NCBI RefSeq assembly: GCF_016904885.1
Contig: NZ_JADWYI010000001.1
Span: 2,976,001-3,040,000, forward strand
Direction of reading: 5' to 3'
Origin: Archangium primigenium
Lineage (GTDB): Bacteria > Myxococcota > Myxococcia > Myxococcales > Myxococcaceae
Length of the DNA stretch: 64,000 nt
Made by a program: the position numbers and the translations under genes. Below the pieces are notes generated by a model. That model was not told the DNA's origin and ran no database searches. It worked only from the letters and a program-made list of their open reading frames with translations. This document shows, piece after piece, positions 14,915 to 58,799 of the stretch. Each line of letters begins with the position of its first letter. The stretch's first letter is position 1.

Positions 14915-15041
14915 GTCGCTGAAGCCCCCACCGGAGGGGGGCGCCCCGGAACCCTACAGCCTGGTTGCTATTCCCACGAACGGACGAGCGGGCGGGGGGT
15001 CCAGGACGTCACGAAGCCGCCACTCGGGGGTGTCAGGAGGA

Positions 15042-15069
15042 TTGACGTGCCGCCGTCAGCGGTTAAGGT
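15042..15069 (+). promoter_or_regulatory. candidate promoter of ssrA
   Basis: TTGACG (15042-15047) and TAAGGT (15064-15069) with a 16-bp spacer resemble a housekeeping promoter. Transcription would begin about 40 bp upstream of the mature tmRNA 5' end. The -35 is strong and the -10 is weak. Confidence 0.45.
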
Positions 15070-15117
15070 AGGTGGAGCAGCGAAGAGGTAGAGCAGTGGC
15101 CGTACGAAGTCACGACC

Positions 15118-15479
15118 GGGGGCGACCTGGTTTCGACGGGGGCATGGAAGTTCGAGACGCGTGCCGAGCATGTTGGTCGCTCGTAAAAACGCCCAACACA
15201 GACACAAAAGCCAACGACAACGTTGAGCTCGCGCTGGCTGCCTAACTAGGCGGTTCTTGGTGCGCGGTCCTCCTGCTCTCGGCCCGTGGGGTGGGGTAGG
15301 ACCGTCATAATGCGGGCTGGCCGTCGAGTGAGCCTGGGCGCTCGACGGTGAGATCTTCCAGGACCGGCTCACAGGATTCCGTCCGTGGAAGCCTGGGGGA
15401 CGTAATAAAGCGCGGACTACGCACGTAGGGTCGAAGAACGGAAGGCTTTCGGACGCGGGTTCGATTCCCGCCGCCTCCA
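15118..15479 (+). ncRNA. ssrA: transfer-messenger RNA
   Basis: tmRNA rescues stalled ribosomes. The 5' end GGGGGCG pairs with CGCCTCC at the 3' end to form the acceptor stem (with one G-U pair), and the tRNA-like 5' segment G-A-C-C-T-G-G-T-T-T-C-G-A-C is typical. The T-arm GCGGGTTCGATTCCCGC is at 15455-15471. The tag reading frame ends ANDNVELALAA then TAA (15210-15245); the exact resume codon is inferred. CCA is not fully encoded (the DNA reads CTCCACAC). The 3' 25 bp of the RNA also belong to the left copy of the island's flanking repeat, so the present 3' end was probably supplied by the incoming element. Confidence 0.95.
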
Positions 15480-15525
15480 CACGTAGAAGCCCAGCAACCT
15501 CACCGGGTCGCTGGGCTTTTTTTTG
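15455..15525 (+). repeat. left copy of ssrA 3'-end direct repeat (putative attL)
   Basis: 71 bp that recur at 24473-24543. The first 29 bp (15455-15483) are identical in both copies, and the rest, covering the terminator, differs at three positions. The 29-bp core spans the T-arm and 3' acceptor strand of tmRNA, a classic integration target of tyrosine-recombinase elements. Confidence 0.85.
15488..15524 (+). terminator. ssrA: ssrA terminator (left, element-derived copy)
   Basis: Rho-independent. AGCCCAGC and GCTGGGCT form the stem, followed by eight T residues. A longer 12-bp stem is spoiled by one A-C mismatch, unlike the right copy. Confidence 0.85.
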
Positions 15526-15629
15526 CCCTCGTTTTCGCATGTGCCCGCGGTGTGGGTCTGATCCGCTTTTGGGACTGGCCCGCTTTTGTGGACATACCTC
15601 GTAAGTCGGCTACACGGGAGGTAGTGTCC

Positions 15630-15941
15630 ATGGAACGAAGGAAGAGGCGCAGCTTCAACGAGGAGTTCAAGGCCGAGGCGGTCCGACTGGTGCGCGAGGG
15701 CGGCAAGAGCGTGCCTCAAGTGGCCAGGGACTTGGACCTGACGGATTCGGCCCTGCGCAACTGGGTGAGGCAGGCGGAGGTGGACGAGGGCAAGGGCCCG
15801 GCGGGCGCGCTCACCACGGCCGAGCGGGAGGAATTCGCACGGCTGCGCAAGGAGGTGCGCCAGCTGACGATGGAGCGTGACTTCCTAAAAAAAGCGGCGG
15901 CCTTCTTCGCGAAGGAGGGCTCGACGTGCAGTTCGAGCTGA
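15630..15941 (+). CDS. IS3-family transposase OrfA
   Basis: A 103-residue helix-turn-helix protein (M-E-R-R-K-R-R-S-F-N-E-E-F-K...), with the HTH around residues 25-50 and a leucine-zipper-like segment after (E-F-A-R-L-R-K-E-V-R-Q-L-T-M-E-R-D-F-L-K-K). It recognises the terminal repeats. Codon pair AAA-AAA at 15888-15893, preceded by A and followed by G, forms a slippery run. A -1 slip there joins the frame directly to OrfB without a stop, giving the OrfAB transposase. The ATG at 15630 matches the family N-terminus. Confidence 0.9.
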   Translation: MERRKRRSFNEEFKAEAVRLVREGGKSVPQVARDLDLTDSALRNWVRQAEVDEGKGPAGALTTAEREEFARLRKEVRQLTMERDFLKKAAAFFAKEGSTCSSS

Positions 15942-16801
15942 TGGACGCGCAGAAGGCCCACTTCCCCGTGAAGTTCATGAGCCAGCAGTTGGGGGTGTCG
16001 CGCTCGGGCTACTATGCGTGGCGAGGGCGCCCGGAGTCCGCGCGGCGGGCGTCGGACCGTGCACTGTCCGAGGAAGTCACCCGGGTGCACCACGCCAGTC
16101 GCCGCACGTACGGCAGCCCGCGAGTGCATGCGGAGCTGCGAGCCCGCGGCCAGCGGGTGAGCCGCAAGCGCGTGGTGCGGCTCATGCGCGAGCAGGGCCT
16201 GGCCGCACGCAGGCGGCGGCGCTACGTGGTCACCACGGACTCGCGCCACCACCAGCCCGTGGCGCCCAATGTGCTCGCGCGGGACTTCTCTCCGGCGCAA
16301 CCCAACACCACCTGGGCGACAGACATCACGTACGTCGGCACGCGCGGGGGATGGCTGTACCTGGCGGTGGTGCTCGACCTGTTTTCGCGCAGGGTGGTGG
16401 GCTGGTCCATGAGCAATGCCATCGATCGGCACCTGGTGCTGGCCGCCCTGGATATGGCGCTCGAGGGCCGTCAGCCCCCACGCGGGCTGGTGCACCACTC
16501 GGACCGGGGCAGTCAGTACGCCAGCGAGGACTACAGACGTGCCCTGGCGACACGGGGCATTGAGTGCAGCATGTCGCGCAAGGGCAATTGCTGGGACAAC
16601 GCCGTGGTGGAGAGTTTCTTCAGCACCCTGAAGCAAGAGCTCGTCTACACCACGGACTTCACCACGCGCGCGCAGGCCCGGCTGGCCCTCTTCGAGTACA
16701 TCGAGGCCTTCTACAACCGGCAGCGTCGCCACTCGACCCTGGGCTATGTCAGTCCTGTGGCTTTTGAGCTTGCGGCCTTACCGCAGAAGTTGGCAGCATA
16801 A
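15926..16801 (+). CDS. IS3-family transposase OrfB (DDE integrase domain)
   Basis: A 291-residue catalytic half with the retroviral-integrase fold. The acidic triad is complete: Asp133 (A-T-D-I-T-Y-V), Asp193 (H-S-D-R-G-S-Q-Y) and Glu229 (N-A-V-V-E-S-F), with 35 residues between the last two, i.e. DD35E. It is translated mainly as an OrfAB fusion by -1 frameshifting upstream at ~15887-15893. Its own GTG start at 15926 overlaps orfA. The frame is intact, so the element could be active. Confidence 0.94.
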   Translation: MQFELMDAQKAHFPVKFMSQQLGVSRSGYYAWRGRPESARRASDRALSEEVTRVHHASRRTYGSPRVHAELRARGQRVSRKRVVRLMREQGLAARRRRRYVVTTDSRHHQPVAPNVLARDFSPAQPNTTWATDITYVGTRGGWLYLAVVLDLFSRRVVGWSMSNAIDRHLVLAALDMALEGRQPPRGLVHHSDRGSQYASEDYRRALATRGIECSMSRKGNCWDNAVVESFFSTLKQELVYTTDFTTRAQARLALFEYIEAFYNRQRRHSTLGYVSPVAFELAALPQKLAA

Positions 16802-16826
16802 CCCCACTGTCCACGTCAGCGGGCCA

Positions 16827-17228
16827 AGCTCAGGCAGGAAGCGCCACTTGTTGGTGGACACCCTGGGGCTGCTACTCGTCGCGTGGATGACGACAGGGGA
16901 CGTGCAGGACAGGGACGCGACCCCTGCGGTGTTGCCTCTGGCGGCGCAACAATATCCTACGCTCAAAAAAGTCTGGGTGGATGGCGGCTACACTGGGCCG
17001 AAAGTTCAAGCAGTGGCCCAGGAGAGCGGCATTGACGTCGAGGTGGTGAAGCGCTCGGACCAGGCGAAGGGATTCGTTCTCCTTCCCAAACGATGGATTG
17101 GAGAGAGGACCTTTGGATGGCTGAACCGGCAGCGGCGCCTTTCAAAGGACTACGAGCGCCAAGAGTCTTCCTCCGAAGCGTTCATTCAACTCGGCATGAT
17201 CGACCTCATGCTCCGGCGCCTCGCCTGA
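16827..17228 (+). pseudogene. IS5-family transposase, 5'-truncated
   Basis: 133 codons of the C-terminal half of an IS5-type transposase, beginning right at the end of the IS3 element. It reads G-R-K-R-H-L-L-V-D-T-L-G-L-L-L, then the second catalytic Asp in W-V-D-G-G-Y-T-G and the catalytic Glu in W-I-G-E-R-T-F-G-W. The N-terminal half with the first Asp is missing and is not found on the other side of the IS3 element, so the IS3 insertion was accompanied or followed by deletion. Non-functional. Confidence 0.85.
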
Positions 17229-17447
17229 CTGCCCCACTTCAACACCCTCTCAGTTCCAGCAAGCTCATGCTCTTTCAACCCATGAGCCCCGACGGTTTCT
17301 TCCGAGCCGTGAATCAGTAGCTCTTTCCTGGCCGCTGCTTGGGGCGCCTCGTTCGTCTCTTCCGTACCTGCTTGGGTGAACTCCTTGGCTCCTTGCAGAC
17401 GGCGGCTTGATACCAGTCAGAAAGTGCGAAACTCTAACTCAGTATTA

Positions 17448-17482
17448 ATAGGGGAGACAGGCCCCACACCTGTCTCCCCTAT
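17448..17482. repeat. 13-bp perfect hairpin in an otherwise empty gap
   Basis: ATAGGGGAGACAG and CTGTCTCCCCTAT flank a 9-nt loop (GCCCCACAC). It lies in the 308-bp gap 17229-17536 between the truncated IS5 transposase and the 3' end of the lipase gene. I see no gene in that gap. It could terminate the lipase mRNA or be a REP-like palindrome. Confidence 0.65.
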
Positions 17483-17536
17483 CAATTCCGTCGCTCGTGT
17501 GCGCCCTAGGCCAAGAAACTGGGCATTACTTAACAT

Positions 17537-20500
17537 CTACCAAGGGCAGTCAACGACCTCAACCGTACGAGTTACTGGCAGAGAACTGTTTCCACCACTG
17601 TCCCGTACCTCGTAAAGCACAGTATATGTGCCTTGGGACCAACCATTCACGTACCCTGTCGTCGCCACGGTTGGCTCCACGTTGCCGTAGCATGCGTCAA
17701 ATGCCTCAACCCCAGGATCCTCCCACCAACTTCCGCACTGATGCGTCATATGAGCAGGTCCCCTAAGCTTCAGAGTCGGAGGTGTTTGATCATCCACATG
17801 CACCCAACGGACAGCACTTGCCGTGAAGCCGGCGGTGTTCCACGCGATATATTCTACTGGGTATGAGCCCTCTGCCCAAGTATTCGGACCTGGTCCGTAG
17901 TCATCGGGGTCTTGTGTACCCGGGATGCCGTCTCCATCATCGTCTCCAGAATTGTATCGGTGTACCTGCAATGGTCCACATGAATCCCACGCTTGTGCGC
18001 CGGGGTCTACCCAAGTGTCCCTGCCACACTCCAAAGAGATGTGACTATCACCATTGAGCACGAGCGTTGATTCGCTTGGATCGATCACCATGATCATAGC
18101 TTCGCAAGAAGACGACAACCCTGATGAATCCGTGCAGGTCAGCGTTACCAAATGAGAGCCCACTGGATAGGGCCCAACTGGTGTCTGAATACATGAAAGC
18201 GTGTCTTCCGGATCTGGATCGTAGGAACCATTATTCACTGAATCCTTCAACCCACATGCCGCCGGCATTGTCACATCGCGGCAGCGCGCTATGGGTGACC
18301 GGTTCTCCTTCGCAAGGAGTATTTCCACAGAGGCTTCTGCAATGACGGAATTACCTTCGGGATCGGCTACTTTTACACGAACTGTCTGAAGCCCCACCGG
18401 AGCATGGATGTAGGGCGTGAAAGTGACCGACTGTCCCGACACTTCGAAAATCCCATCAGCGTCGAGATCCCATGAATAGTCGAGGACCTCCCCTTCTGGA
18501 TCAATACCAATCGCTGTCAACGCAACGGAACCACCGGCACGGACGCGGAATGGTCCTTCGATCAGAACGAGCGGAGTTCCGCGCATAGGCGCAAAGCTTC
18601 GATATGTATAACTCTGGGTCGAGTGGGCGAGGCGAATCTCCTGGCTCAACAAAGGAGCCGCTCGCGAATCGAGAAGCCTCACGTTCCGGACAGTATAGGG
18701 ACCATCCATCTTCGACCGATAGATATCCTCGGCACGGAAGCGCAGTTCCACATCATTCGTGCCGCGCCGGGCTGGTACGGAGACGCTCGACCTTGCTACG
18801 ACACTACCATCCGAACCCGTCAGCTCGGCGAAAGCTCCAAGTTCCCCGCCTTCGTAGTCAGAAATCACCCTCAAGGAGACAACCAGTGCACTATTTAGTT
18901 CCACGACGTCGGCGCGAGGAAGAGCGCGATCCGTATGCCCGTGTCCCAGGCGAACTGCTGTCGATTGAACTTGGACGAACTCGCGTCCACCGCGTTCGAA
19001 GGCAACGCCATCGGATCGCTGACCTGTCATGGACCAGTCGAAAGCCACGTAACCCGATGGCCCCGAAACCACATACTTGGCCTCGAATTCGTTGGCGCTG
19101 AGGCGGGTCAGGCTTATCACTTCCGAATTGCCGCCGGGGTATTGTACCTTCACCTGAACATTGGCATCCAGCACCGGCTCTGAAAGACTCACGCGCAGTG
19201 TGGCTATGGTGCCAATTTCATATGAAATTCGATCGCTTGAGAATCCGGCCGAAAGAGGACTGTCGAATCCAGCCGCTGTTGTAACGGATGCCCCTTCAGC
19301 AGGGAGGTCATCAAGCCCATCCAGGACGATCTGCCACGTGCCCGGACGGGTTGCGGGAAAATAGTATACCGCCTGCATCGAATCCCCAGAGTATACAACT
19401 GTATCTGGAGTCGGCTCCGTTACCACTACAGCATCAGACTCATCGGTCTCTGCTTGGATCGAAGCGGCGTATGCAGGATCGATAACCTTTCCTGTTGGGT
19501 CGATGAGCGTAAAGTTGACATGGCCCTCAGTCCAGGAAGAAGAGAAGGCTGTTGCCCCCCCTTCGATATAAACGGAACGAACCCTATGTTCACCAGGCCG
19601 GAGGATGGTCTGCGCAACACGCGAAAGCTGATCGAGATTGGGAGCAGGTAAAAGCTCTTCATCATTCGCCGCCGCACTTTTCAGGCTCGCAAGACTCAAG
19701 CCTAGACAAGAGAGAGGTGGACCCCAACTGCGAGCACCGCACGTGAGTGCACTGCGGTCGAGTAACAGTTTCTTGGAGCATTGTGCAAACCCTTCCTGCG
19801 AAACCCCGCCGTCCCACGAGTGATAATCGCGTCCCCCAAGCATAGGGGCCGAATGCACCTCACGTGTGAGGTAACGATCAATATTGCTTCCAAGCATCCC
19901 GGATGCGCTACAAGTTTGAATGAAACCATCATCCGGCCCGAGGATCAAAACGCCCGTCGCCCAACCTCCGGCATTTCGGAAGCTCAAGTCAGGCCAGGGA
20001 ATCTTGAGGAGGCATATTTTCTTGCCAAAGATTTTGAAACACACTTTTTTGTGCGTCCACATAGGGGCGTCGCCCGCGATCAAGTGGTAGTCGACACCAT
20101 CCCGCTTGTAATGTGTCAAATTAAAGAGTGCCATTCCCGGCTTCGTCATCTGGCAGACGGCATCAGGACGTGGCAGCACGTAACAACCAAGCGCAAGAAG
20201 CGATGGAGTGCCAAGATGAGGACTTCCATAGGTGAAAATTTGTGAGACATCTCCCTCGTACATGCCTCCCTCTAAATAGGAGCGCGCCACCAGACCACCC
20301 ATACTTTGCCCATAGAGAATGACTTTCTCGCGGCCTGTTAGTTTTTTGGCGGCAGTGATCCCTTCTTTGACTCGTTTGGCATTAACACTGAAAGGAGGGG
20401 TCCATAGCGGACTGGTTTGCAGGTTAACGGAAACGGTATAGTACCCTCCTCCACTAAATTCATTAGGTAGTCTTGCAAAGTCACTTGGTCCCGAGGTCCA

Positions 20501-21565
20501 TCCATGCACAAAAACGATTGGGTCGCGATCCCAACCCGTGACCCCCACTCTCGTGCGCGGCTCAGTTTGTGTTAGGGATTTCGTATAGTTATCGTTTTGG
20601 TATTGGGCGGAGCCAAAAGCCCATCCATCAAGCGTTGCCCGCACAGTATAAGTGCCCAATGGCAGGTTTGAAAACACCCGGCATCCAGATGCATCTGTAT
20701 CCCCACCCAGGCCAGGTCCCACCTCTATCCATGCCTTTTTTTTGATGAGCTTGTTAGTTAATTCAGCCGTCCTGCCACTGACACATGCGGTGATTTGACC
20801 CGTGGACGCAGTGCCACGACCAAAGACCGAGGCGAGGTCCTCTTTTGTGATGGCCCGATCGAACATCGCTGCTTCGTCAATGGCTCCTGAGCCATTGCGA
20901 AGGTCGCAGCAACTGTCGCTACCAAACCACACATCAATGAGCCCGGAGAAAGACCTTCTGCTGGCTGGATATGAACTGGTCGAAACAATCTCTCCGTCGA
21001 GCACCAAAGAAGCGGTCTGAGCAAATTCATCGTATATAATCCCGTACTGATGCCAGTGGGTTATGTCAGCGACATTTAGCGTGCCAACACGTTCATAGTC
21101 GGTAGGGCCCTGCTTGCCAATTATGTAGAGTCCAACGGTTTTCTTACCCTGATCTGGATGGATTATGAAGCCGTTTGGAGAGCGTGAACTCCAAATCCAT
21201 CCATAGTCGTTCCACTGCGTTGTGTTGGAGCGGGCCCACACCAAGGCGGTAAAGCTACGCTTGACAGGTATGTTGAGCGCCTGGGCATGACCATTGCGGC
21301 CGTCCACGGCCATTGCCGTGTTGCCATCGCCAGCAATGCCTGGCACTCCCTGTGTGGTCGAGCCAAGATAGACTCCGTGGAAGCCATTGATCGATGAGTC
21401 GGACATCGTCGATGCACCACGGGGCTCACCAAAACGCCAGTAGGCGGTTGGTTTTTGTGCGATGATGTCGACTGGATTTGGCGCTTGCGCTTGCGCTCGC
21501 GCCAAGAAAACAAGATTCGTCAATAGAATAAGGCAAATGTACAACAGGGGACTTGCTCTGCGCAT
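17537..21565 (-). CDS. secreted multidomain LamG-lipase-PKD-HYR-DUF5011 protein
   Basis: A 1342-residue exported protein. The ATG at 21565 has an AGAGGG site 8 nt upstream and gives a good signal peptide (L-L-Y-I-C-L-I-L-L-T-N-L-V-F-L-A-R-A); earlier in-frame codons do not. Domains in order: LamG/concanavalin-like lectin (~38-245); a carboxypeptidase-regulatory-like beta domain (~255-320); an alpha/beta-hydrolase lipase (~346-590) with V-F-V-H-G-W, nucleophile Ser421 in G-Q-S-M-G-G and probable Asp545/His582; Ig-like regions; a PKD-like domain (~1000-1090); a HYR-like domain; and two DUF5011 repeats at the C-terminus. It probably hydrolyses an ester while bound to a surface or glycan. Lower GC than neighbouring genes marks it as acquired cargo. 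Confidence 0.9.
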   Translation of the reverse strand: MRRASPLLYICLILLTNLVFLARAQAQAPNPVDIIAQKPTAYWRFGEPRGASTMSDSSINGFHGVYLGSTTQGVPGIAGDGNTAMAVDGRNGHAQALNIPVKRSFTALVWARSNTTQWNDYGWIWSSRSPNGFIIHPDQGKKTVGLYIIGKQGPTDYERVGTLNVADITHWHQYGIIYDEFAQTASLVLDGEIVSTSSYPASRRSFSGLIDVWFGSDSCCDLRNGSGAIDEAAMFDRAITKEDLASVFGRGTASTGQITACVSGRTAELTNKLIKKKAWIEVGPGLGGDTDASGCRVFSNLPLGTYTVRATLDGWAFGSAQYQNDNYTKSLTQTEPRTRVGVTGWDRDPIVFVHGWTSGPSDFARLPNEFSGGGYYTVSVNLQTSPLWTPPFSVNAKRVKEGITAAKKLTGREKVILYGQSMGGLVARSYLEGGMYEGDVSQIFTYGSPHLGTPSLLALGCYVLPRPDAVCQMTKPGMALFNLTHYKRDGVDYHLIAGDAPMWTHKKVCFKIFGKKICLLKIPWPDLSFRNAGGWATGVLILGPDDGFIQTCSASGMLGSNIDRYLTREVHSAPMLGGRDYHSWDGGVSQEGFAQCSKKLLLDRSALTCGARSWGPPLSCLGLSLASLKSAAANDEELLPAPNLDQLSRVAQTILRPGEHRVRSVYIEGGATAFSSSWTEGHVNFTLIDPTGKVIDPAYAASIQAETDESDAVVVTEPTPDTVVYSGDSMQAVYYFPATRPGTWQIVLDGLDDLPAEGASVTTAAGFDSPLSAGFSSDRISYEIGTIATLRVSLSEPVLDANVQVKVQYPGGNSEVISLTRLSANEFEAKYVVSGPSGYVAFDWSMTGQRSDGVAFERGGREFVQVQSTAVRLGHGHTDRALPRADVVELNSALVVSLRVISDYEGGELGAFAELTGSDGSVVARSSVSVPARRGTNDVELRFRAEDIYRSKMDGPYTVRNVRLLDSRAAPLLSQEIRLAHSTQSYTYRSFAPMRGTPLVLIEGPFRVRAGGSVALTAIGIDPEGEVLDYSWDLDADGIFEVSGQSVTFTPYIHAPVGLQTVRVKVADPEGNSVIAEASVEILLAKENRSPIARCRDVTMPAACGLKDSVNNGSYDPDPEDTLSCIQTPVGPYPVGSHLVTLTCTDSSGLSSSCEAMIMVIDPSESTLVLNGDSHISLECGRDTWVDPGAQAWDSCGPLQVHRYNSGDDDGDGIPGTQDPDDYGPGPNTWAEGSYPVEYIAWNTAGFTASAVRWVHVDDQTPPTLKLRGPAHMTHQCGSWWEDPGVEAFDACYGNVEPTVATTGYVNGWSQGTYTVLYEVRDSGGNSSLPVTRTVEVVDCPW

Positions 21566-21975
21566 GATGACGGCCCTCTGATTTACCAATTCGAACATGC
21601 ATGTCTGAGCGCCTCCGGCCGTGTGATTGGAAGAAAAAACGGCCGAGGTGGGCTCATGCTTGAACGGTAAAATACACCAAGAATAATTATTCACCAACGG
21701 TGAAGGCCGCAAACTTCCAGGCTTGTTCTTTTTCATGGACCTCCAATATTTTGCATGCTTAGCATTGCTGCGTCAGGGACCCAGCAGGTGCGCGATGCAA
21801 CTTGCCGGGTGATGTAATGGGCGCTGGGTGTTGGAGCGGTGACAGCAGGGGCAGCGCGGCAACCAAGTGGCAATCACCCGGGCTATGGCAATCCGCGCGG
21901 TGATGAAGCTGTCGTGAAGGTGGCGCTCATTCACGGCTCGGGTGGATCAGTCGGGGGACCAAGAAGCGCCAATTA
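21566..21975. other. intergenic region upstream of the lipase gene
   Basis: About 410 bp, less GC-rich than the chromosome around the island. It should contain the lipase promoter, but I cannot pick one convincingly. No gene is visible. Confidence 0.5.
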
Positions 21976-22026
21976 GAGAGCCTAACTTAACTTGCGGAGT
22001 AGCCTGGGCGTAACCACCTTGGAGGT

Positions 22027-22428
22027 ATGGCCAGAGAACTGCTGCCGGACGTCCTGTGGGTGCGCGTGAAGGACCTGCTGCCCGTCCATCCTCCTCAACC
22101 CAAGGGCGGGCGGCCCTGGAAAGAGGACCGGCTCGCGCTGCGCGGCATCATCTTCGTGCTCAAGGCCAACATCCCCTGGGAGTTGCTGCCCGCCGAGGTG
22201 TTCGGCGTGTGCGGCATGACGTGCTGGCGACGCCTACGCGACTGGGCCGAAGCGGGAGTGTGGGAACGCCTCCAGCGACTGCTGGAGGCGGAGTTGGGAG
22301 GCCAGGACCTGATTGACTGGAAACGAGCCGCCATCGACTCCACGTCGGTGCCGGCAAAAAGGGGGGTCTACTCACCGGCCCCAACCCGACGGACCGAGGG
22401 CGTCCGGGCAGCAAGCACCACCTGGTGA
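22027..22428 (+). CDS. IS5-family transposase, first frame
   Basis: 133 codons. The N-terminal DUF4096-type DNA-binding region (G-G-R-P-W-K-E-D-R...L-L-P-A-E-V-F-G) is followed by the first catalytic Asp in A-A-I-D-S-T-S-V-P-A-K. After AAAAAGGGGGG (22356-22366) the family sequence continues in the -1 frame (K-K-G-G-L-L-T-G-P-N-P-T-D-R-G), so a -1 slip here makes the full transposase. The last ~20 codons of this frame are not family-like. Confidence 0.85.
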   Translation: MARELLPDVLWVRVKDLLPVHPPQPKGGRPWKEDRLALRGIIFVLKANIPWELLPAEVFGVCGMTCWRRLRDWAEAGVWERLQRLLEAELGGQDLIDWKRAAIDSTSVPAKRGVYSPAPTRRTEGVRAASTTW

Positions 22429-22820
22429 CCGACGGCGCGGGCCTGCCGCTGGCCGAGTCCCTCACTCCGGCCAACACGCATGACAGTCGTGAGGCGCTGC
22501 CGCTCGTGGACGAGATTCCTCGCGTGAAGTCGCCGCGGGGCGCGTCGCGCAGGCGGCCCGGCAAATTGCATGCGGACAAGGGCTACGATTATCCGCGTGT
22601 GCGCCAGGGACTGCGTCAGCGGCACATCCAACCGAGGATTGCTCGCCGGGGCGTGGAGTCCTCCACTCGCCTGGGCCGCCACCGGTGGGTGGTGGAACGG
22701 ACCTTTGCTTGGTTGAAGTTCTTTCGCCGCCTCGTCATCCGCTACGAAGTGCGCGACGACATCCACTTCGCCTTCCTCCAGCTCGCCTGCTGCCTCATCC
22801 TCATCCGGAGGTTGAGTTAG
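22425..22820 (+). CDS. IS5-family transposase, second frame
   Basis: 131 codons from a GTG start, with the matching frame extending back to ~22357. It holds the rest of the IS4/IS5-type DDE domain: the second Asp in L-H-A-D-K-G-Y-D-Y and the Glu in W-V-V-E-R-T-F-A-W-L-K, plus the conserved end F-L-Q-L-A-C-C-L-I-L-I-R-R. It is functional only if joined to the first frame by frameshifting, which is the usual arrangement in IS427-type elements. Confidence 0.88.
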   Translation: MTDGAGLPLAESLTPANTHDSREALPLVDEIPRVKSPRGASRRRPGKLHADKGYDYPRVRQGLRQRHIQPRIARRGVESSTRLGRHRWVVERTFAWLKFFRRLVIRYEVRDDIHFAFLQLACCLILIRRLS

Positions 22821-22849
22821 GCTCTCTTAGTTGGAGTACGGCCTGGGGT

Positions 22850-23190
22850 CACGAGCTGAAGCCGCGCCAGTTCAGGGAGGAACTGGTTGTGCGTGGCACG
22901 GCGGCGCAGCAAGCGCCACAGTCGCTCAATGGGCTGTAGTTGGGGGTTGTAGGGCGGCAATCGATAAAGCTTCATGTGAGGACAGCGCTTCAAGACCCAG
23001 TCCACGGGTCGTCTGCGGTGCCAGGCGCGTTGTCGATGACGAGCAGAACCTCGGGGTAGGCTTCGGCGGGACAGGCGCGGGAGACATCCAGCAGGTGGTT
23101 GCAGAAAGCCAGCTGCAACCGCTTTGTCCAAGGGGACCAAACCGAGCGGACGCGCCTGAACTCGCCCGGACAGATGAGCGCTCCGTTATC
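22850..23190 (-). pseudogene. IS630-family transposase remnant, frameshifted and truncated
   Basis: Reading on the minus strand, one frame carries the second-Asp region (E-V-L-L-V-I-D-N-A-P-G-T-A-D-D-P-W) and another carries the third motif (Y-R-L-P-P-Y-N-P-Q-L-Q-P-I-E-R-L-W). The two belong to one DDE domain split by a frameshift near 23000. The N-terminal part is missing. It lies between the IS427-like element and the intact IS630 element, which is on the other strand and of a different subtype. Confidence 0.8.
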
Positions 23191-23235
23191 ATAGGAAAAA
23201 TGGGGATGTGCCTCTGGTCCCTAAACGACGGGCCG

Positions 23236-24437
23236 TGATTCTCGAACGGCCTGGAGGGTAGGCAGGCCAGGGGTAGGCCGCAGAGGGAAGGAAGAGGGAG
23301 AGACCCGACTCGTTCGGCTTTGTGTGCGCAAGAACCAGAAGACGAGAAGAGCCCTCCCTCAAGGCAAGGTGGTGCTGAGGCTGAGGGCGGGCCAGAGGAG
23401 AAAGCTGCTGCGGTGGGCGGAGAAGAAGGGCTGCCCGCTGACCTTGCGACGTTGCATGGCGGTGGCGAAGGTGGGCCAGGGGCTGTCGTACCGGGCGGTG
23501 GCTCGCGAGTTGTTGTGCTCGGTGTCCACGGTGGCGGATGCCGTGCGGCGCTACAAGCAGACAGGCCGCCACGGACTGCTGGACAGAAGAGCGGGCAATG
23601 GCCGACGCAAGGTGGGCGAGCCCTATGAGGCTCAGCTGAAGCAAGTGCTGGAGGGCACGCCCCAAGACATGGGGTGGTTGCGCACGACGTGGACGCGCGA
23701 ATTGCTGGCGTGCGAGTTGGAGCGGAGAGGTCTGCCTCGGGTATCGGTGACGAGCGTGGGCCGAGCCCTGGAGCGAGTCGGCGCGAGCCTCAAGCGGCCT
23801 CGACCCGTCGTGCTGTGTCCATGGCCCGCGCCCCGCCGCGCTCGCCGCGTATGGCAGCTCAAGTGCCTGGCGGCCCATGCCACGGCGAACGAGCCTGTCT
23901 TTTATGAAGATGAGATGGATGTGCACCTCAACCCCAAGCCAGGCTGGGACTGGATGCTGCCCGGCCACAGGCGACTGCTGGTCACGCCCGGGAATAATCG
24001 CAAGGGGTATGTCGGGGGGGCGCTGGAGTCCAGGACGGGACGCCTCACCTGGGTGAAAGGCGCGAACAAGACGAGTGACCTGTTCATCGAGCTGCTGCAC
24101 GCGCTTGTCCAGGAGCATCCGCGGGCCACGCGACTGCACGTCATCCTGGACAATGCCTCGATGCACCACGGCCAGAAGACAAGACGTGCACTCGCGGCGC
24201 TGGGAGGGCGGGTCGTGCTGCACTTCCTGCCGCCCTATTGCCCCTCGGCCAACAAGATTGAGCGGGTGTGGTGGGACGTCCACGCCCACGTCACTCGGAA
24301 TCACCGTCGCGCGAACCTGGACTCCCTTCTGGGCGATGTGGACGCCTACCTCGCAGGCCGCAACGTCCACGCCACCTCTCATCCAACCCTGCGCAGCGGG
24401 TATGCCCCCCTTGCCGCATAGGGTCGTTCGGGAATCA
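23236..24437 (+). mobile_element. IS630-family insertion sequence (~1.2 kb)
   Basis: Imperfect 16-bp inverted repeats, TGATTCTCGAACGGCC at 23236-23251 and the complement of TGATTCCCGAACGACC at 24422-24437 (14 of 16 match), bracket one transposase gene. The TA target duplication expected for the family is not obvious at these limits, so the exact ends may differ by a few bases. The right end lies 35 bp from the right ssrA repeat. Confidence 0.72.
23324..24421 (+). CDS. IS630-family transposase
   Basis: A 365-residue transposase. The N-terminal winged HTH region (residues ~40-90, S-Y-R-A-V-A-R-E-L-L-C-S-V-S-T-V) is followed by a DDE domain with Asp196 (F-Y-E-D-E-M-D), Asp276 (V-I-L-D-N-A-S-M-H-H) and Glu313 (S-A-N-K-I-E-R-V-W-W). 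The triad and length are intact, so it is probably functional. The stop overlaps the beginning of the right inverted repeat, as is common in compact insertion sequences. Confidence 0.93.
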   Translation: MRKNQKTRRALPQGKVVLRLRAGQRRKLLRWAEKKGCPLTLRRCMAVAKVGQGLSYRAVARELLCSVSTVADAVRRYKQTGRHGLLDRRAGNGRRKVGEPYEAQLKQVLEGTPQDMGWLRTTWTRELLACELERRGLPRVSVTSVGRALERVGASLKRPRPVVLCPWPAPRRARRVWQLKCLAAHATANEPVFYEDEMDVHLNPKPGWDWMLPGHRRLLVTPGNNRKGYVGGALESRTGRLTWVKGANKTSDLFIELLHALVQEHPRATRLHVILDNASMHHGQKTRRALAALGGRVVLHFLPPYCPSANKIERVWWDVHAHVTRNHRRANLDSLLGDVDAYLAGRNVHATSHPTLRSGYAPLAA

Positions 24438-24472
24438 TGAGCGGTCGTTTAGGGCGCGCGGTTCTGCCGCCA

Positions 24473-24543
24473 GCGGGTTCGATTCCCGCCGCCTCCACAC
24501 GGAGAAGCCCAGCAACCTCACCGGGTTGCTGGGCTTTTTCTTT
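24473..24543 (+). repeat. right copy of ssrA 3'-end direct repeat (putative attR)
   Basis: Matches 15455-15525: 29 identical bp (T-arm and 3' acceptor strand of tmRNA), then the terminator with three differences. No tmRNA body precedes it, so this should be the original chromosomal 3' end left behind when the element integrated. Confidence 0.85.
24506..24543 (+). terminator. orphan ssrA-type terminator (right copy)
   Basis: AGCCCAGCAACC and GGTTGCTGGGCT form a perfect 12-bp stem with a 6-nt loop, followed by TTTTTCTTT. It now follows the IS630 element and not an RNA gene. Confidence 0.85.
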
Positions 24544-24559
24544 GCCCCGAACCGATAGG

Positions 24560-25438
24560 TCAGGGGCTCTCGCCACGCAGGAGCCGTGCCTCGTCCGCAT
24601 AGCCGCACGGGCCTTCCTCGCGCAAATGCGGTTCTCCCTCCGTGAGCTTGATCTTCCCCTTGTCGAGAGCCGCCCGGACCCTCCGCCTCCAGCCTTTGAA
24701 ATAATCGCTGGAGGGCTCGCACCGGGGATCTCCATACTTCACCTCGGCCACGAGCTGTTCTTCTTCAATCTTGAGGGACTCGAGCTCCGAGGCATCCGTG
24801 GGACCGGAATACGTCTTGGAATCCAGGAGCCGTCGCTTCTTGTCCACCCCGAAGTAGAGCGCCTTCACGTTGAAATAGGAACTCCCGAAGTCTCCCTGCT
24901 GTGACCAGTAGTAACTGAAGGTCAGCGCGATGAGTGTGCTCTTGCCCTGGACGACTCGCTCGGTGCGCTCGATTTTCCAGCGAACGGGCTCGCCGTCATC
25001 ATTGCTGGTGGCCTCCGCCATCTGGGGACAATCCAGCGCGGGGAGGTCATGCGTCGGCGCATACTTCACGGTCCGCGTGTAGACCTCCGGGGCGAGGGCC
25101 TGGAAGACCTTCAACAACGTCGTCTCCGCCTTGGGACAGACGCCGAGCGCGACGACGAAGAAGCCCGGCTTGAGGCCCTCGATGCGCGCACTTTCCAGCA
25201 CCTGGGGTTCGAGCGTGAGCACGGACTCGAGCACCCGTTGATAGGCCGCGAAGTGCTTCTTTTGGGCCTCGGCCTCGGCCCGGGTGGCCCCGCCCGACCA
25301 GACGAACAGCTCGCCTTGCACCTGGGGCGATTCATTCGTCTCGGGCTCGGGAGGCGGAGGGGAACTGGCCCAGGCCAGGCGCGCCGTGAGAAGCAGCAGG
25401 CCTCCCAGGAGTGAATGAGCGCTCGTTCTTCGTGGCAT
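24560..25438 (-). CDS. exported protein of unknown function
   Basis: A 292-residue protein starting M-P-R-R-T-S-A-H-S-L-L with a signal peptide ending A-W-A near residue 24, then a Pro/Glu-rich linker and a mixed alpha/beta domain. I recognise no family. The ATG at 25438 has GGAGG about 6 nt upstream, which decides against the in-frame codon at 25471. Four cysteines in the mature part could form disulfides. It is the first chromosomal gene right of the island and converges on it. About 260 bp separate it from the divergent lipoprotein gene at 25701, and I see nothing else in that gap. Confidence 0.72.
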   Translation of the reverse strand: MPRRTSAHSLLGGLLLLTARLAWASSPPPPEPETNESPQVQGELFVWSGGATRAEAEAQKKHFAAYQRVLESVLTLEPQVLESARIEGLKPGFFVVALGVCPKAETTLLKVFQALAPEVYTRTVKYAPTHDLPALDCPQMAEATSNDDGEPVRWKIERTERVVQGKSTLIALTFSYYWSQQGDFGSSYFNVKALYFGVDKKRRLLDSKTYSGPTDASELESLKIEEEQLVAEVKYGDPRCEPSSDYFKGWRRRVRAALDKGKIKLTEGEPHLREEGPCGYADEARLLRGESP

Positions 25439-25700
25439 GGACGACCTCCGGCTGAGTGGGGTGGGCGCCATCCTGGTCTACTCGGCGGCGTATAGGCAGG
25501 ACAAAGGCCGTGTTGAGGGGAGAGGGCTGGTGCGGAGAGGCCGAGGAGGGCCTGACGGGGGCCGGTCGAGCCGTGAGCCGGTCGGTGGAGATGGCTGCGC
25601 GAGCCCTTGAGGAAAATCTTCGTGCCCACGCCGCTGTCCACCGAATGTCGTGACAGAACGAAGGGCGGGAGTCGCGCGGCGGAAGAGCTAGGATGTCCGG

Positions 25701-57080: not shown

Positions 57081-58799
57081 ATGAATGGCCGTCGTGCCCT
57101 GTCTCCTGTCCTCCTCGTCGGTGCCGGAACCGGCGAGGCCACGTGCGGCATCCTCTACCTCGCGGGCTACCTGCGGCGGAACGGGGTCGAGGCCTTCGTG
57201 CGGTTGTACGACGGGGACCAGACGGAGGAGGAGGTGGCCCACTCCCTCGAGGTCCTCGTGGCCCGGGTGCGGCCCCGGCTCGTGGGCATCAGCCTCAAGT
57301 GGTTCCATCATGTCCACCGCGCCTTGCTCCTGGCGCGGACGCTGCGGCGGATCGACCCCGAGATCCAGATCGTCCTGGGCGGCAACACGGCGTCGTACTG
57401 GTGGCGGGAGCTGGACGCGTTCGATTGCATCGATCACATCGTCCTGGGGGATGGGGAGGTGCCGCTGCTGGCGCTCTGCCAGGGGCATCCCGCTCCGCCC
57501 AACTGCGTCACCCGCAAGCCGGACGGCACGCCCCGGCGCCTGCCCCTGGCGTACGTGCAAGGCGCCACGAACAGCGAGGACATCTATTACTCGCACTTCG
57601 ATGACATCTTCCTGAGCCAGCAGGACCGCCACGCCTTCTCCGGCTGGGTCGCGCCCGGCAAGGGCTGCGGCGAGAACTGCCTCTACTGTGGCGGGGCGCG
57701 CGGCAACCAGAAGGCGGCCTTCGGACGCGCGAAGCCGTTCCTGCGCTCCGAGGAGAGCGTGCGCCGCGACCACCAGGAGATCGCCCACCGGACGTGGCAG
57801 ATGCGCTACGACTTCTCGGGCAGCTCGGCGGCGTTTCTCCAGGGCACGTGGGCGGGGGTCGATCTCTCGCGCCACTCCTGCATGTACTTCCTGTGGGGCG
57901 TGGCCCGCATGGAGCTCATCGACGCGCTGGCCAGCACCTTCGACCATGTCCACATGGTGCTGGACATCGGCTGCTTCTCCGAGAAGCAGCGGCTCGAGCA
58001 GATGGGCCGGGGGCTCCTCAAGCCGTGCGCCTCCGATCAGCAGCTCCTCGACATCATCGACGCGTGCCAGCGCCACCCGAACCTGGACGTCGAGGTGTCC
58101 GGAATCGCGGGCCTGCCCTTCGCCAGCGCCGCCACGCTCAAGGAGGAAGTGCGCCTGGTGGAGCGCGTGATGAGCCTGGACTGTGGGGTGGGCTACCAGC
58201 GGCTCGAGGCGCAGCCCGGAGCGCTCGCCACGGAGCATCCCGCGCGCTTCGACATGGTGACCGAGGCGCGGACGTTCTCGGAGTTCCTCGAGTACTTCGA
58301 GCGGCGCGAGCCCGGTGACGTGTCCGTGCCGATGCTGCGCTTTCGCGATCCGGCGCTCGAGGCGGCGGTGCAGCGCACGACGGCGCACGTGGAGGCCCTC
58401 GAGTCCAAGCACAGCGAGGCCAAGCGGCGGGTCGTGGTCAACGGGCGCACGCGGCTCAAGAACACCGCGCCCGCGACGCTCCAGTTCAAGCTCGGGGAGT
58501 GGCTGGGGCCCCACCGGGTTCCCGCCCGGGTGGCGCAGGAGCCCGTGACCTATGTCCGCTCGGTGGACGGAACGGGCCTGGCCTGCGCGCCATCGCTCAA
58601 TCCCCGACGTTTCACCGATCCCACGTTGGATCAGGGCGACGATGGCCGCATCCTGTTGACCACGCTGGGCGTCTTCGCGCAGCCCACCACCGTCTCCCAG
58701 GCCGTGTCGCAACTGAGCGCGAAGCTGAGGCTCGACCCGCACTCGGCGCGAGACGTCATCGACCACCTCGTGGACGGTCGCTTCCTGCAGCCGGTGTGA
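57081..58799 (+). CDS. B12-binding-type radical SAM protein
   Basis: A 572-residue enzyme. N-terminal cobalamin-binding-like domain (~5-135; V-G-A-G-T-G-E-A...V-G-I-S-L-K...V-L-G-G-N), radical SAM core (~185-400) with the cluster motif C-x3-C-x2-C (Cys196, Cys200, Cys203), and a C-terminal ~150 residues that end in a small winged-helix-like region (L-D-P-H-S-A-R-D-V-I-D-H-L-V-D-G-R-F-L). The usual D-x-H-x-x-G B12 motif is absent, so cobalamin binding is uncertain. Related enzymes methylate or cyclise natural products. It is divergent from the cysteine-synthase-like gene. Substrate unknown. Confidence 0.9.
   Translation: MNGRRALSPVLLVGAGTGEATCGILYLAGYLRRNGVEAFVRLYDGDQTEEEVAHSLEVLVARVRPRLVGISLKWFHHVHRALLLARTLRRIDPEIQIVLGGNTASYWWRELDAFDCIDHIVLGDGEVPLLALCQGHPAPPNCVTRKPDGTPRRLPLAYVQGATNSEDIYYSHFDDIFLSQQDRHAFSGWVAPGKGCGENCLYCGGARGNQKAAFGRAKPFLRSEESVRRDHQEIAHRTWQMRYDFSGSSAAFLQGTWAGVDLSRHSCMYFLWGVARMELIDALASTFDHVHMVLDIGCFSEKQRLEQMGRGLLKPCASDQQLLDIIDACQRHPNLDVEVSGIAGLPFASAATLKEEVRLVERVMSLDCGVGYQRLEAQPGALATEHPARFDMVTEARTFSEFLEYFERREPGDVSVPMLRFRDPALEAAVQRTTAHVEALESKHSEAKRRVVVNGRTRLKNTAPATLQFKLGEWLGPHRVPARVAQEPVTYVRSVDGTGLACAPSLNPRRFTDPTLDQGDDGRILLTTLGVFAQPTTVSQAVSQLSAKLRLDPHSARDVIDHLVDGRFLQPV

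What the first reader, a model, noticed from the sequence alone, without database searches (positions are those of the whole stretch)
15455..24543. Genomic island integrated at the 3' end of ssrA, with reconstituted tmRNA end
29 bp covering the tmRNA T-arm and 3' acceptor strand are repeated exactly 9018 bp apart, with the terminator also duplicated (three differences). The right copy has a perfect 12-bp terminator stem; the left copy has a mismatch. This fits the left end being supplied by an incoming element that rebuilt ssrA, the right end being the old chromosomal 3' end. No integrase survives and four different insertion sequences fill the island, so mobility was lost.
Basis: partly seen in the sequence, partly recalled or inferred. 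Interest (0 to 1): 0.8.

Follow-up and report, generated by a model that had tools for sequence, protein, structure and literature searches.

The report
Decayed mobile island at ssrA gene
A 9-kb stretch next to a bacterial gene for ribosome rescue looks like the ruin of a mobile DNA element that once rebuilt the end of that gene, and it belongs to a family of elements whose copies of that gene end are scattered through the genomes of several related soil bacteria.

Summary
In detail: 29 nt of the tmRNA T-arm/acceptor plus a terminator recur 9018 bp apart, and the left terminator stem has a mismatch.

New evidence ties both ends to a dispersed element family. The left end matches integrase-bearing element ends for about 100 nt, then an IS3 interrupts it. 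Window 23126-23221 matches a recurrent right-end type (eight loci in two relatives), interrupted by an IS630 just before the right copy. No match to the family's integrases or excisionase-like protein remains.

The predicted empty site was not found: the gene at 24560 is not beside ssrA in any of 58 relatives searched, and DNA beyond it carries an island-associated repeat. "Old chromosomal end" is likely but unproven.

The larger result: the 25-nt ssrA core occurs 19-45 times in 8 of 59 genomes (control 0; 37 have one or two). Neighbouring cores share orientation in 36 of 39 pairs (four genomes). Upstream and downstream ends mix freely. At eight sites sister species match up to, or a few tens of bases before, the core's place and then share nothing. 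Some copies carry a tyrosine recombinase. How cores spread away from ssrA is unresolved.

The parts
15118..15482 (+). ssrA (tmRNA), intact, tag ANDNVELALAA
   Evidence: ARAGORN; Rfam RF00023 185 bits, model 1-374
15455..15483 (+). left core (attL): T-arm and acceptor 3' strand, 29 nt identical to the right copy
15455..15554 (+). element left end (type Y0): core, terminator and about 25 nt of further element sequence
   Evidence: aligns to integrase-bearing elements to position 100-101; positions 76-100 are 73-81% identical to six element ends
15555..16832 (+). IS3-type insertion sequence (ORFs 15552-15941 and 15926-16801) that cuts the left end
   Evidence: Pfam HTH_Tnp_1, rve; an 89% copy in relative G002 aligns to 15555-16832
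16833..17228 (+). fragment of an IS4/IS5-type transposase
   Evidence: Pfam DDE_Tnp_1 in ORF 16746-17228
17537..21736 (-). 1399-aa protein with LamG-like, PGAP1-like alpha/beta hydrolase, PKD and surface Ig-like domains; the only non-IS gene seen in the island
   Evidence: Pfam; matches in other genomes cover only its C-terminal part
21975..22827 (+). IS5-like element, transposase in two frames (22027-22428, 22425-22820), 24-nt inverted repeats at its ends
   Evidence: Pfam DUF4096 and DDE_Tnp_1; inverted repeat I4
22817..23140 (-). fragment of an IS630-type transposase
   Evidence: Pfam DDE_3 E 1.5e-6, 28.5 bits against a cut-off of 28.6
23126..23221 (+). element right end (type X3), cut by the following IS630
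   Evidence: matches the upstream flank of dispersed cores at 8 loci in G002 and G010, from 71% E 1e-4 to 87% E 9e-26
23219..24454 (+). IS630-type insertion sequence inside the right end (transposase 23324-24421)
   Evidence: Pfam DDE_3; 33-nt inverted repeats 23219-23251/24422-24454
24455..24472 (+). 18 nt that may be the rest of the X3 right end
   Evidence: inference from position: X3 matches stop about 23 nt before the core elsewhere
24473..24501 (+). right core (attR): 29 nt identical to the tmRNA 3' end
24502..24546 (+). right terminator, unbroken stem
   Evidence: folding; identities
24560..25471 (-). 303-aa protein of unknown family, immediate right neighbour
   Evidence: no Pfam or NCBIfam match; not beside ssrA in relatives
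25486..25614 (+). about 110-bp dispersed repeat, also part of another island-end type (Y2) 130-151 nt after a core

Best explanation
The 9 kb is a decayed integrative element of a myxobacterial family. A tyrosine recombinase joined a circular form to the 3' end of ssrA by strand exchange in or next to the T-loop (TTCGATT). The element's left end carried a spare tmRNA 3' end plus a terminator and so rebuilt ssrA; the displaced 3' end now marks the right border. Afterwards an IS3 element entered just past the left end, where the integrase lies in relatives, an IS630 element entered the right end, and the integrase and excisionase were lost. Shown: the repeat, intact ssrA, both element-type ends, no remaining match to the family's integrase, and the same left end with integrases in relatives. 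Inferred: the circular form and its chemistry, the exact crossover, the order of decay, and that the right copy is native.
For: Exact repeat with no chance expectation and full tmRNA. The left end aligns with integrase-bearing elements to about 101 nt, the right copy only to about 75 nt. In relatives a recombinase of 395-403 aa (Phage_integrase plus SAM-like domain) lies convergent to this left end, with an HTH_17 protein behind it in L050. The X3 right end lies at 23126-23221, next to the right core apart from the IS630. Y0 and X3 ends also bound a 12.3-kb block in G002. Same-orientation second cores lie downstream of ssrA in G001 (3.6 kb), G031 (10.9 kb), G010 (18.6 kb), G003 (20.1 kb) and G002 (30.3 kb), 5 of the 8 core-rich genomes. 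Left-half core variants follow the upstream end type (X1B GCGGG 10 of 10, X3 GCGGC 8 of 8, X1A ACGGG 8 of 11; X2 and X4 are mixed) while downstream ends vary.
Against: No empty site was found among 58 relatives, and the right neighbour gene is not beside ssrA in them. The right core here reads GCGGG, whereas all eight other X3 ends have GCGGC, so the crossover model is not perfectly met. No integrase is present to test. The nearest analogues at ssrA (G031, and the first element in G001) give no match to these integrases either, so the enzyme that placed them is inferred. In G017 the nearest second core (4.7 kb) is in the opposite orientation. G016 and G030 were not assessed at ssrA (truncated list; contig end).
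Confidence: 0.82

Rival explanations
1. The right copy is not the old chromosomal end but the junction between two tandem islands; the chromosomal end lies further right or has been lost.
For: Relatives carry several cores in a row after ssrA (G001: 3.6 kb and 12.8 kb; also G002 and G010). The DNA right of the window's second copy bears a repeat that is part of island end type Y2 at four sites, and no clear synteny with relatives was seen downstream.
Against: There is no third core in the window; the genome's other two cores lie about 0.5 and 3.7 Mb away. The right terminator is closest to those of two single-core genomes, though other native terminators are not closer than element ends.
Confidence: 0.35
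2. The second copy arose by duplication or homologous recombination between pre-existing dispersed cores, not by site-specific integration at ssrA.
For: Cores are dispersed in the family and could recombine. At one chromosomal site (S165, G002) the inserted block is flanked by a diverged duplicate of the gene end rather than by a second core.
Against: The own genome has only four cores. Both ends are of types seen in the element family, and neighbouring cores share orientation in 36 of 39 pairs, as attL/attR pairs do.
Confidence: 0.12
3. The repeat is a tRNA gene or tRNA-like gene unrelated to ssrA.
For: T-arms are similar among tRNAs; two own-genome matches at 76-79% lie in tRNA-Asp genes.
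Against: No tRNA at 24473 or elsewhere in the window. The match runs through the tmRNA acceptor strand and its terminator, 92% over 77 nt.
Confidence: 0.01

Closest known systems
tRNA/tmRNA-gene genomic islands as catalogued by Islander (PMC4383910, passages seen)
   Same: Intact tmRNA at one border, displaced 3' fragment in the same orientation at the other; the tmRNA gene is the most enriched target there
   Different: No integrase inside, so the Islander filter, which rejects candidates without an integrase reading frame, would drop it; in several relatives the core is dispersed far from ssrA
ssrA-specific genomic islands of Dehalococcoides (PMC3146451, passages seen)
   Same: Islands at ssrA, short direct repeats of its 3' end, insertion in the T-loop, tandem arrays, many islands without their own integration module
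   Different: That integrase is a serine recombinase (DsiB, CcrB homologue) and all repeats lie within 100 kb downstream of ssrA; here the enzyme of related elements is a tyrosine recombinase and cores are spread over whole genomes
Integrons with attC cassettes
   Same: Many modular DNA units bounded by one kind of site that can form a hairpin, fewer recombinases than sites
   Different: The recombinase scores far below the integron-integrase cut-off (54.3 versus 265 bits); attC sites were not searched for; core-to-core blocks are mostly 1.5-15.6 kb at scattered places
SitA toxin-immunity loci of myxobacteria (PMC5562445, passages seen)
   Same: Lipoprotein toxins with immunity genes on mobile DNA in the same bacterial group; [quoted passage not shown]
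   Different: The DUF6310/DUF5953 pairs seen between cores were not tested as SitA members; none was seen in the window island

Membership tests
tmRNA-gene genomic island (Islander definition) | intact tRNA/tmRNA gene at one border | tested here: met
tmRNA-gene genomic island (Islander definition) | displaced 3' fragment, downstream, same orientation, not inside a full tRNA gene | tested here: met
tmRNA-gene genomic island (Islander definition) | fragment does not overlap a conserved protein domain | tested here: inconclusive
   it lies outside the IS630 transposase ORF; the short ORFs that overlap it were not scanned
tmRNA-gene genomic island (Islander definition) | integrase gene inside or overlapping | tested here: not met
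   tblastn with three family queries, no match in 15001-25700; no Phage_integrase among the ORFs scanned
tmRNA-gene genomic island (Islander definition) | length 2-200 kb | tested here: met
   9018 bp
Myxobacterial T-arm-core element family (described here) | Y-type left end after the core | tested here: met
Myxobacterial T-arm-core element family (described here) | X-type right end before the second core | tested here: met
   interrupted by IS630 and with GCGGG instead of GCGGC in the core
Myxobacterial T-arm-core element family (described here) | convergent tyrosine recombinase at the left end | tested here: not met
   absent in the window; present in some but not most core-bounded blocks of relatives
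Dehalococcoides ssrA islands | serine recombinase DsiB | tested here: not met
   relatives carry PF00589 tyrosine recombinases at the matching end; DsiB itself was not searched for
Dehalococcoides ssrA islands | all repeats within 100 kb downstream of ssrA | tested here: not met
   cores spread over the chromosomes of G002 and G010
Integron | IntI-type integrase | tested here: not met
   TIGR02249 54.3 bits, cut-off 265
Integron | recombination of single-stranded folded attC sites | not testable with these tools
   only hairpin potential seen
Prophage | phage structural or replication genes in the element | tested here: inconclusive
   none among the 25 commonest Pfam families of 88 cargo proteins from relatives; rarer families are not listed and PHROGs was not run

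The most novel reading that the evidence does not exclude
In some large-genome myxobacteria the 3' end of ssrA has become a genome-wide docking site. Recombinases of one tyrosine-recombinase family, acting in trans on T-arm cores scattered at gene ends, insert and swap interchangeable blocks with shuffled left and right ends, including probable toxin-immunity pairs and kinase modules. This would be a cassette system of tRNA-like origin comparable in role to an integron. The window island would be a dead copy in a species that has lost or never had the expansion.
Probability: 0.25. Interest if true: 0.75.

Novelty: new variant of a known kind. Interest (0 to 1): 0.45.

Why it matters
Islands at ssrA are common, but a family in which the ssrA 3' end has multiplied to as many as 45 dispersed sites with interchangeable flanks did not appear in the listings of the eight paper searches made (open library only). 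If the sites are active, the system could explain part of the genome growth and gene turnover of these social bacteria, and would offer related recombinase sites as tools in a group that has few (the last point is from general knowledge). It also shows that island finders that demand an integrase miss such borders.

Tried and rejected
tRNA explanation of the repeat: rejected by ARAGORN on the window and on 40 loci; among the loci fetched for dispersed matches, tRNA genes lay at two own-genome places (tRNA-Asp) and one G002 locus (tRNA-Glu). Empty-site search with the neighbour gene (58 relatives) and with 20 kb of downstream DNA (8 relatives): no place with ssrA beside them. In one search one common gene (window about 33.9-35.1 kb, 79%) lies 38 kb downstream of ssrA in G025 in the same orientation, but its other matches lie far from ssrA, so I did not take it as synteny. 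Synteny of the window's right side by blastn and tblastn against ssrA regions of 14 relatives: none convincing. First genome-contig scan with the 303-aa protein gave no relative. Matching the window's only cargo gene to relatives: only its C-terminal part recurs. Phage or plasmid origin of the recombinase: all matches under 60% identity, the rows listed 28-30%, in 50,697 phage and 72,556 plasmid records. Literature on DUF2381/TIGR02268: no paper held. Core palindromes: stems of 8 or more pairs at 22 of 50 sites with unrepeated upstream flanks (12 of 50 have none), against 5 pairs at 27 of 27 ssrA loci; no explanation established.

Limits of the counts. The cargo tally used 88 of 131 predicted genes, from 18 of 19 blocks (L119 left out), choosing mostly longer ones and leaving out the integrases. 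End-type counts use 122 distinct core sites from all loci then held: they oversample G002 and G010, include 27 ssrA loci, may count near-identical sites in related records twice, and drop sites with under 120 nt of flank. Clusters are single-linkage, so Y0 lumps native ssrA terminators (11 ssrA loci) with element left ends. X1A and X1B are my split of one cluster by a motif. The orientation count uses 4 of the 8 core-rich genomes, two of them drafts, with up to 2 mismatches (3 in G002), and assumes independent pairs; lists of the others were truncated or not extracted. Flank comparison: ten flanks were searched; eight had orthologues; S154 and S169 had none; weaker or paralogous places, among them a 90% one for S171 in G003 without a core (L214), were left out of the pairwise test. 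Two of twelve prepared flanks were not searched.
Full report
OBSERVATION. The window holds one tmRNA gene, complete, at 15118-15482. The 28-nt word from its T-arm and acceptor strand is found twice in the window, at 15455 and 24473 on the same strand, and not again with up to 3 mismatches; shuffled sequence gives none. Reading side by side extends the exact match to 29 nt, and the ungapped repeat is 77 nt at 92% with spacing 9018. The terminator copies differ as described: the left stem has an internal mismatch (-23.4 kcal/mol), the right stem is unbroken (-31.8 kcal/mol).

CONTENT. Between the copies lie an IS3-type element (15555-16832), a DDE_Tnp_1 transposase fragment, a 1399-aa protein with LamG-like, PGAP1-like hydrolase, PKD and surface Ig-like domains, an IS5-like element in two frames, an IS630-type fragment and an IS630-type element ending at 24454. 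Tblastn with two integrase subtypes of the family described below and with its HTH_17 protein gives no match in 15001-25700.

THE LOST ELEMENT. Searching 59 genomes with the tmRNA region showed that the tail of the query (T-arm, acceptor, terminator) matches far more places than ssrA itself. Most loci fetched for such matches hold no tRNA gene. Aligned at the core, many share a long downstream stretch: for instance L047 and L050 are 95% identical over 2.0 kb starting at the core. That stretch encodes a convergent tyrosine recombinase of 395-403 aa (Phage_integrase, SAM-like N-terminal domain) and, in L050, an HTH_17 protein behind it, like an excisionase. The window's left copy matches these element ends for about 101 nt, where its IS3 begins; its right copy matches them only to about 75 nt, the end of the terminator. 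In a joint alignment, positions 76-100 of the left copy are 73-81% identical to six element ends at non-ssrA loci. Three ends that follow ssrA in relatives (G031, G017, G025) give 62, 38 and 54%, and six terminators taken as native give 27-58%. The right copy matches neither group there (12-38%). Within the terminator the right copy is closest to G034 and G019 (85 and 87%), in each of which the core occurs once; the other four native terminators give 66-77% and the element ends 72-83%.

THE RIGHT END. Upstream flanks of dispersed cores fall into recurrent types. One of them, X3, matches the window at 23126-23221 (eight loci in G002 and G010, from 71%, E 1e-4, to 87%, E 9e-26). The IS630 begins at 23219 and ends at 24454, and 18 nt later the right core begins. 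The simplest reading is that the IS630 entered the element's right end. Thus both borders of the island carry ends of the same element family. A 12.3-kb block in G002 (L169, cores at 1363 and 13686) has the same pair of end types. One detail does not fit: all eight other X3 ends have GCGGC as the left half of the core, the window has GCGGG.

IS THE RIGHT COPY THE OLD CHROMOSOMAL END? That was not found. At E 1e-15 the 303-aa protein has homologues in 2 of 58 other genomes (51% and 34% in G010, 32% in G030), not beside ssrA. DNA from 25480 to 45400 matches scattered places in eight relatives. Close to ssrA there are only copies of a repeat of about 110 bp (window 25486-25614) in G002 and G010; a common gene also lies 38 kb downstream of ssrA in G025. 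The repeat lies 130-151 nt after a core at four distinct sites among the loci held, as part of another end type (Y2), and elsewhere without a core that near. The ssrA regions of 14 relatives show no convincing synteny with the window downstream of ssrA. The right copy is therefore probably, not certainly, native; a junction with a second island remains possible. G001 shows such a tandem: ssrA, 3.6 kb, core, 12.8 kb with integrase, core.

A DISPERSED CORE FAMILY. The 25-nt core with up to two mismatches occurs 19-45 times in 8 of 59 genomes (G001 31, G002 37, G003 35, G010 41, G016 45, G017 19, G030 41, G031 22), 3-5 times in 3 (the window's own genome has 4), once or twice in 37 and not at all in 11; the reversed control pattern gives 0 in all 59. 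The eight belong to four genera of the window's family. Recombinase matches at E 1e-20 or better number 1-9 per genome in the seven genomes searched, fragments included, so most cores cannot have their own. Neighbouring cores within 20 kb have the same orientation in 36 of 39 pairs in G001, G002, G010 and G030 (binomial P 2e-8 if pairs are independent). End types mix: X1A at 11 sites meets eight repeated downstream types and one unrepeated; X1B at 10 sites meets five repeated types plus five unrepeated ones. For X1A, X1B and X3 the left half of the core follows the upstream type; X2 and X4 are mixed. This suggests strand exchange 3' of the fifth base of the core, in or just after the T-loop; the window's own GCGGG next to X3 speaks against it.

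MOBILITY AWAY FROM ssrA. Of ten cores with unrepeated upstream flanks, eight had orthologous places in sister species. In 16 pairwise comparisons the upstream DNA is 91-97% identical, over 1.4-1.7 kb in 14 and over about 120 nt in two at a contig end, up to the core or within a few tens of bases of its place; the 1.2-1.5 kb downstream shows no similarity at E 1e-5 in any of the 16. At several places the species all have a core or near-core but different DNA behind it (S153 in three genomes; S178, S181, S171); at others a species has no core there (S165 in G001, S159 in G003, S174 and S185 in G030). For S165 the gene that follows directly in G001 lies about 3.9 kb beyond the core in G002 and about 2.8 kb beyond it in G003. 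The far border there is not a second core; in G002 it is a diverged duplicate of the gene end. So the way these blocks arrive is not settled.

CARGO. Of 88 proteins scanned from 18 core-bounded blocks, 8 match protein kinases, 6 DUF2381/TIGR02268, 5 HTH_3, 3 DUF5953 and 3 DUF6310. In L159 a DUF6310 protein with what looks to me like a lipoprotein N-terminus neighbours a DUF5953 protein; L169 has the same order, its neighbour being 62% identical to that DUF5953 protein. This looks like a toxin with its immunity protein; the resemblance to SitA loci is recalled and was not tested. PADLOC matches in the part of the list shown were to kinase-type models.

WHO HAS IT. The genome-contig scan with the recombinase, which finds close relatives only, returned 25 loci: 22 from Myxococcaceae (Archangium, Hyalangium, Pyxidicoccus, Corallococcus, Myxococcus, Citreicoccus and one MAG) and 3 from elsewhere (44%, 30% and a short 57% match). 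In phage and plasmid collections all matches are under 60% identity, those listed 28-30%.

COMPARISON WITH PRINT. Islander describes this border pattern and finds tmRNA the most enriched target, but rejects candidates without an integrase (PMC4383910, passages). Dehalococcoides has tandem ssrA islands with T-loop insertion and 15 members without an integration module, but with a serine recombinase and with all repeats within 100 kb of ssrA (PMC3146451, passages). SitA loci outside Mx-alpha are said to be typically adjacent to other mobile elements (PMC5562445, passages). In a review of mobile elements in social diversification the terms tRNA, tmRNA, integrase and attachment site do not occur (PMC10047993, term search). 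No paper on dispersed ssrA ends in myxobacteria appeared in the listings of the searches made, which cover only the open library.

VERDICT. The finding is real and its main reading is probably right: a decayed integrative island that rebuilt ssrA. By itself this is a new member of a known kind. Its membership in a dispersed family with interchangeable ends is the unusual part and makes it a new variant. The mechanism of dispersal is the open question.

Noticed in passing
window 25486-25614; L189, L174, L163, L161 and others: A repeat of about 110 bp is dispersed in relatives; at four sites it is part of island end type Y2, 130-151 nt after a core, but it also occurs without a core that near, and in the window lies 5' of the 303-aa gene.
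   Followed up: partly
window 17287-17336 and 21907-21956: 50-nt inverted repeats (70%) bound the 4.7-kb unit with the 1399-aa gene, as if it were a composite unit between related IS ends.
   Followed up: no
L108 16282-17555 (G002): An 89% copy of the window's IS3 lies about 140 bp past the ssrA core in G002 too, in the opposite orientation relative to ssrA.
   Followed up: no
L045 2163 and 5039 (G002): The same terminator-bearing end type sits at tRNA-Glu with a tRNA-Glu T-arm and a second copy 2.9 kb away, with a short recombinase fragment (71%) beside it: the family may have been retargeted.
   Followed up: partly
dispersed cores with unrepeated upstream flanks, e.g. L154 1421, L153 1275: The core is often extended into a longer perfect hairpin (8 or more pairs at 22 of 50 sites, none at 12) although ssrA itself allows 5 pairs; reason unknown.
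   Followed up: partly
ssrA of G001, G002, G003, G010, G030: The sequence after ssrA differs between relatives: in G001-G003 it is of end types (Y3, Y4) that also occur after dispersed cores, and G010 and G030 share another (Y5, seen only at their ssrA); ssrA may use element-supplied terminators in several species.
   Followed up: partly
L119 6805-17708 (G031): A 10.9-kb ssrA island bounded by Y0 and X1A ends gives no match to the family's recombinases; by eye its reading frames include regulators and metabolic enzymes (not scanned).
   Followed up: no
window 57081-58799 and L120 3108-4820 (G031): An 83% identical gene lies about 34 kb from ssrA in G031 and about 42 kb in the window, but in the opposite orientation relative to ssrA.
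   Followed up: no
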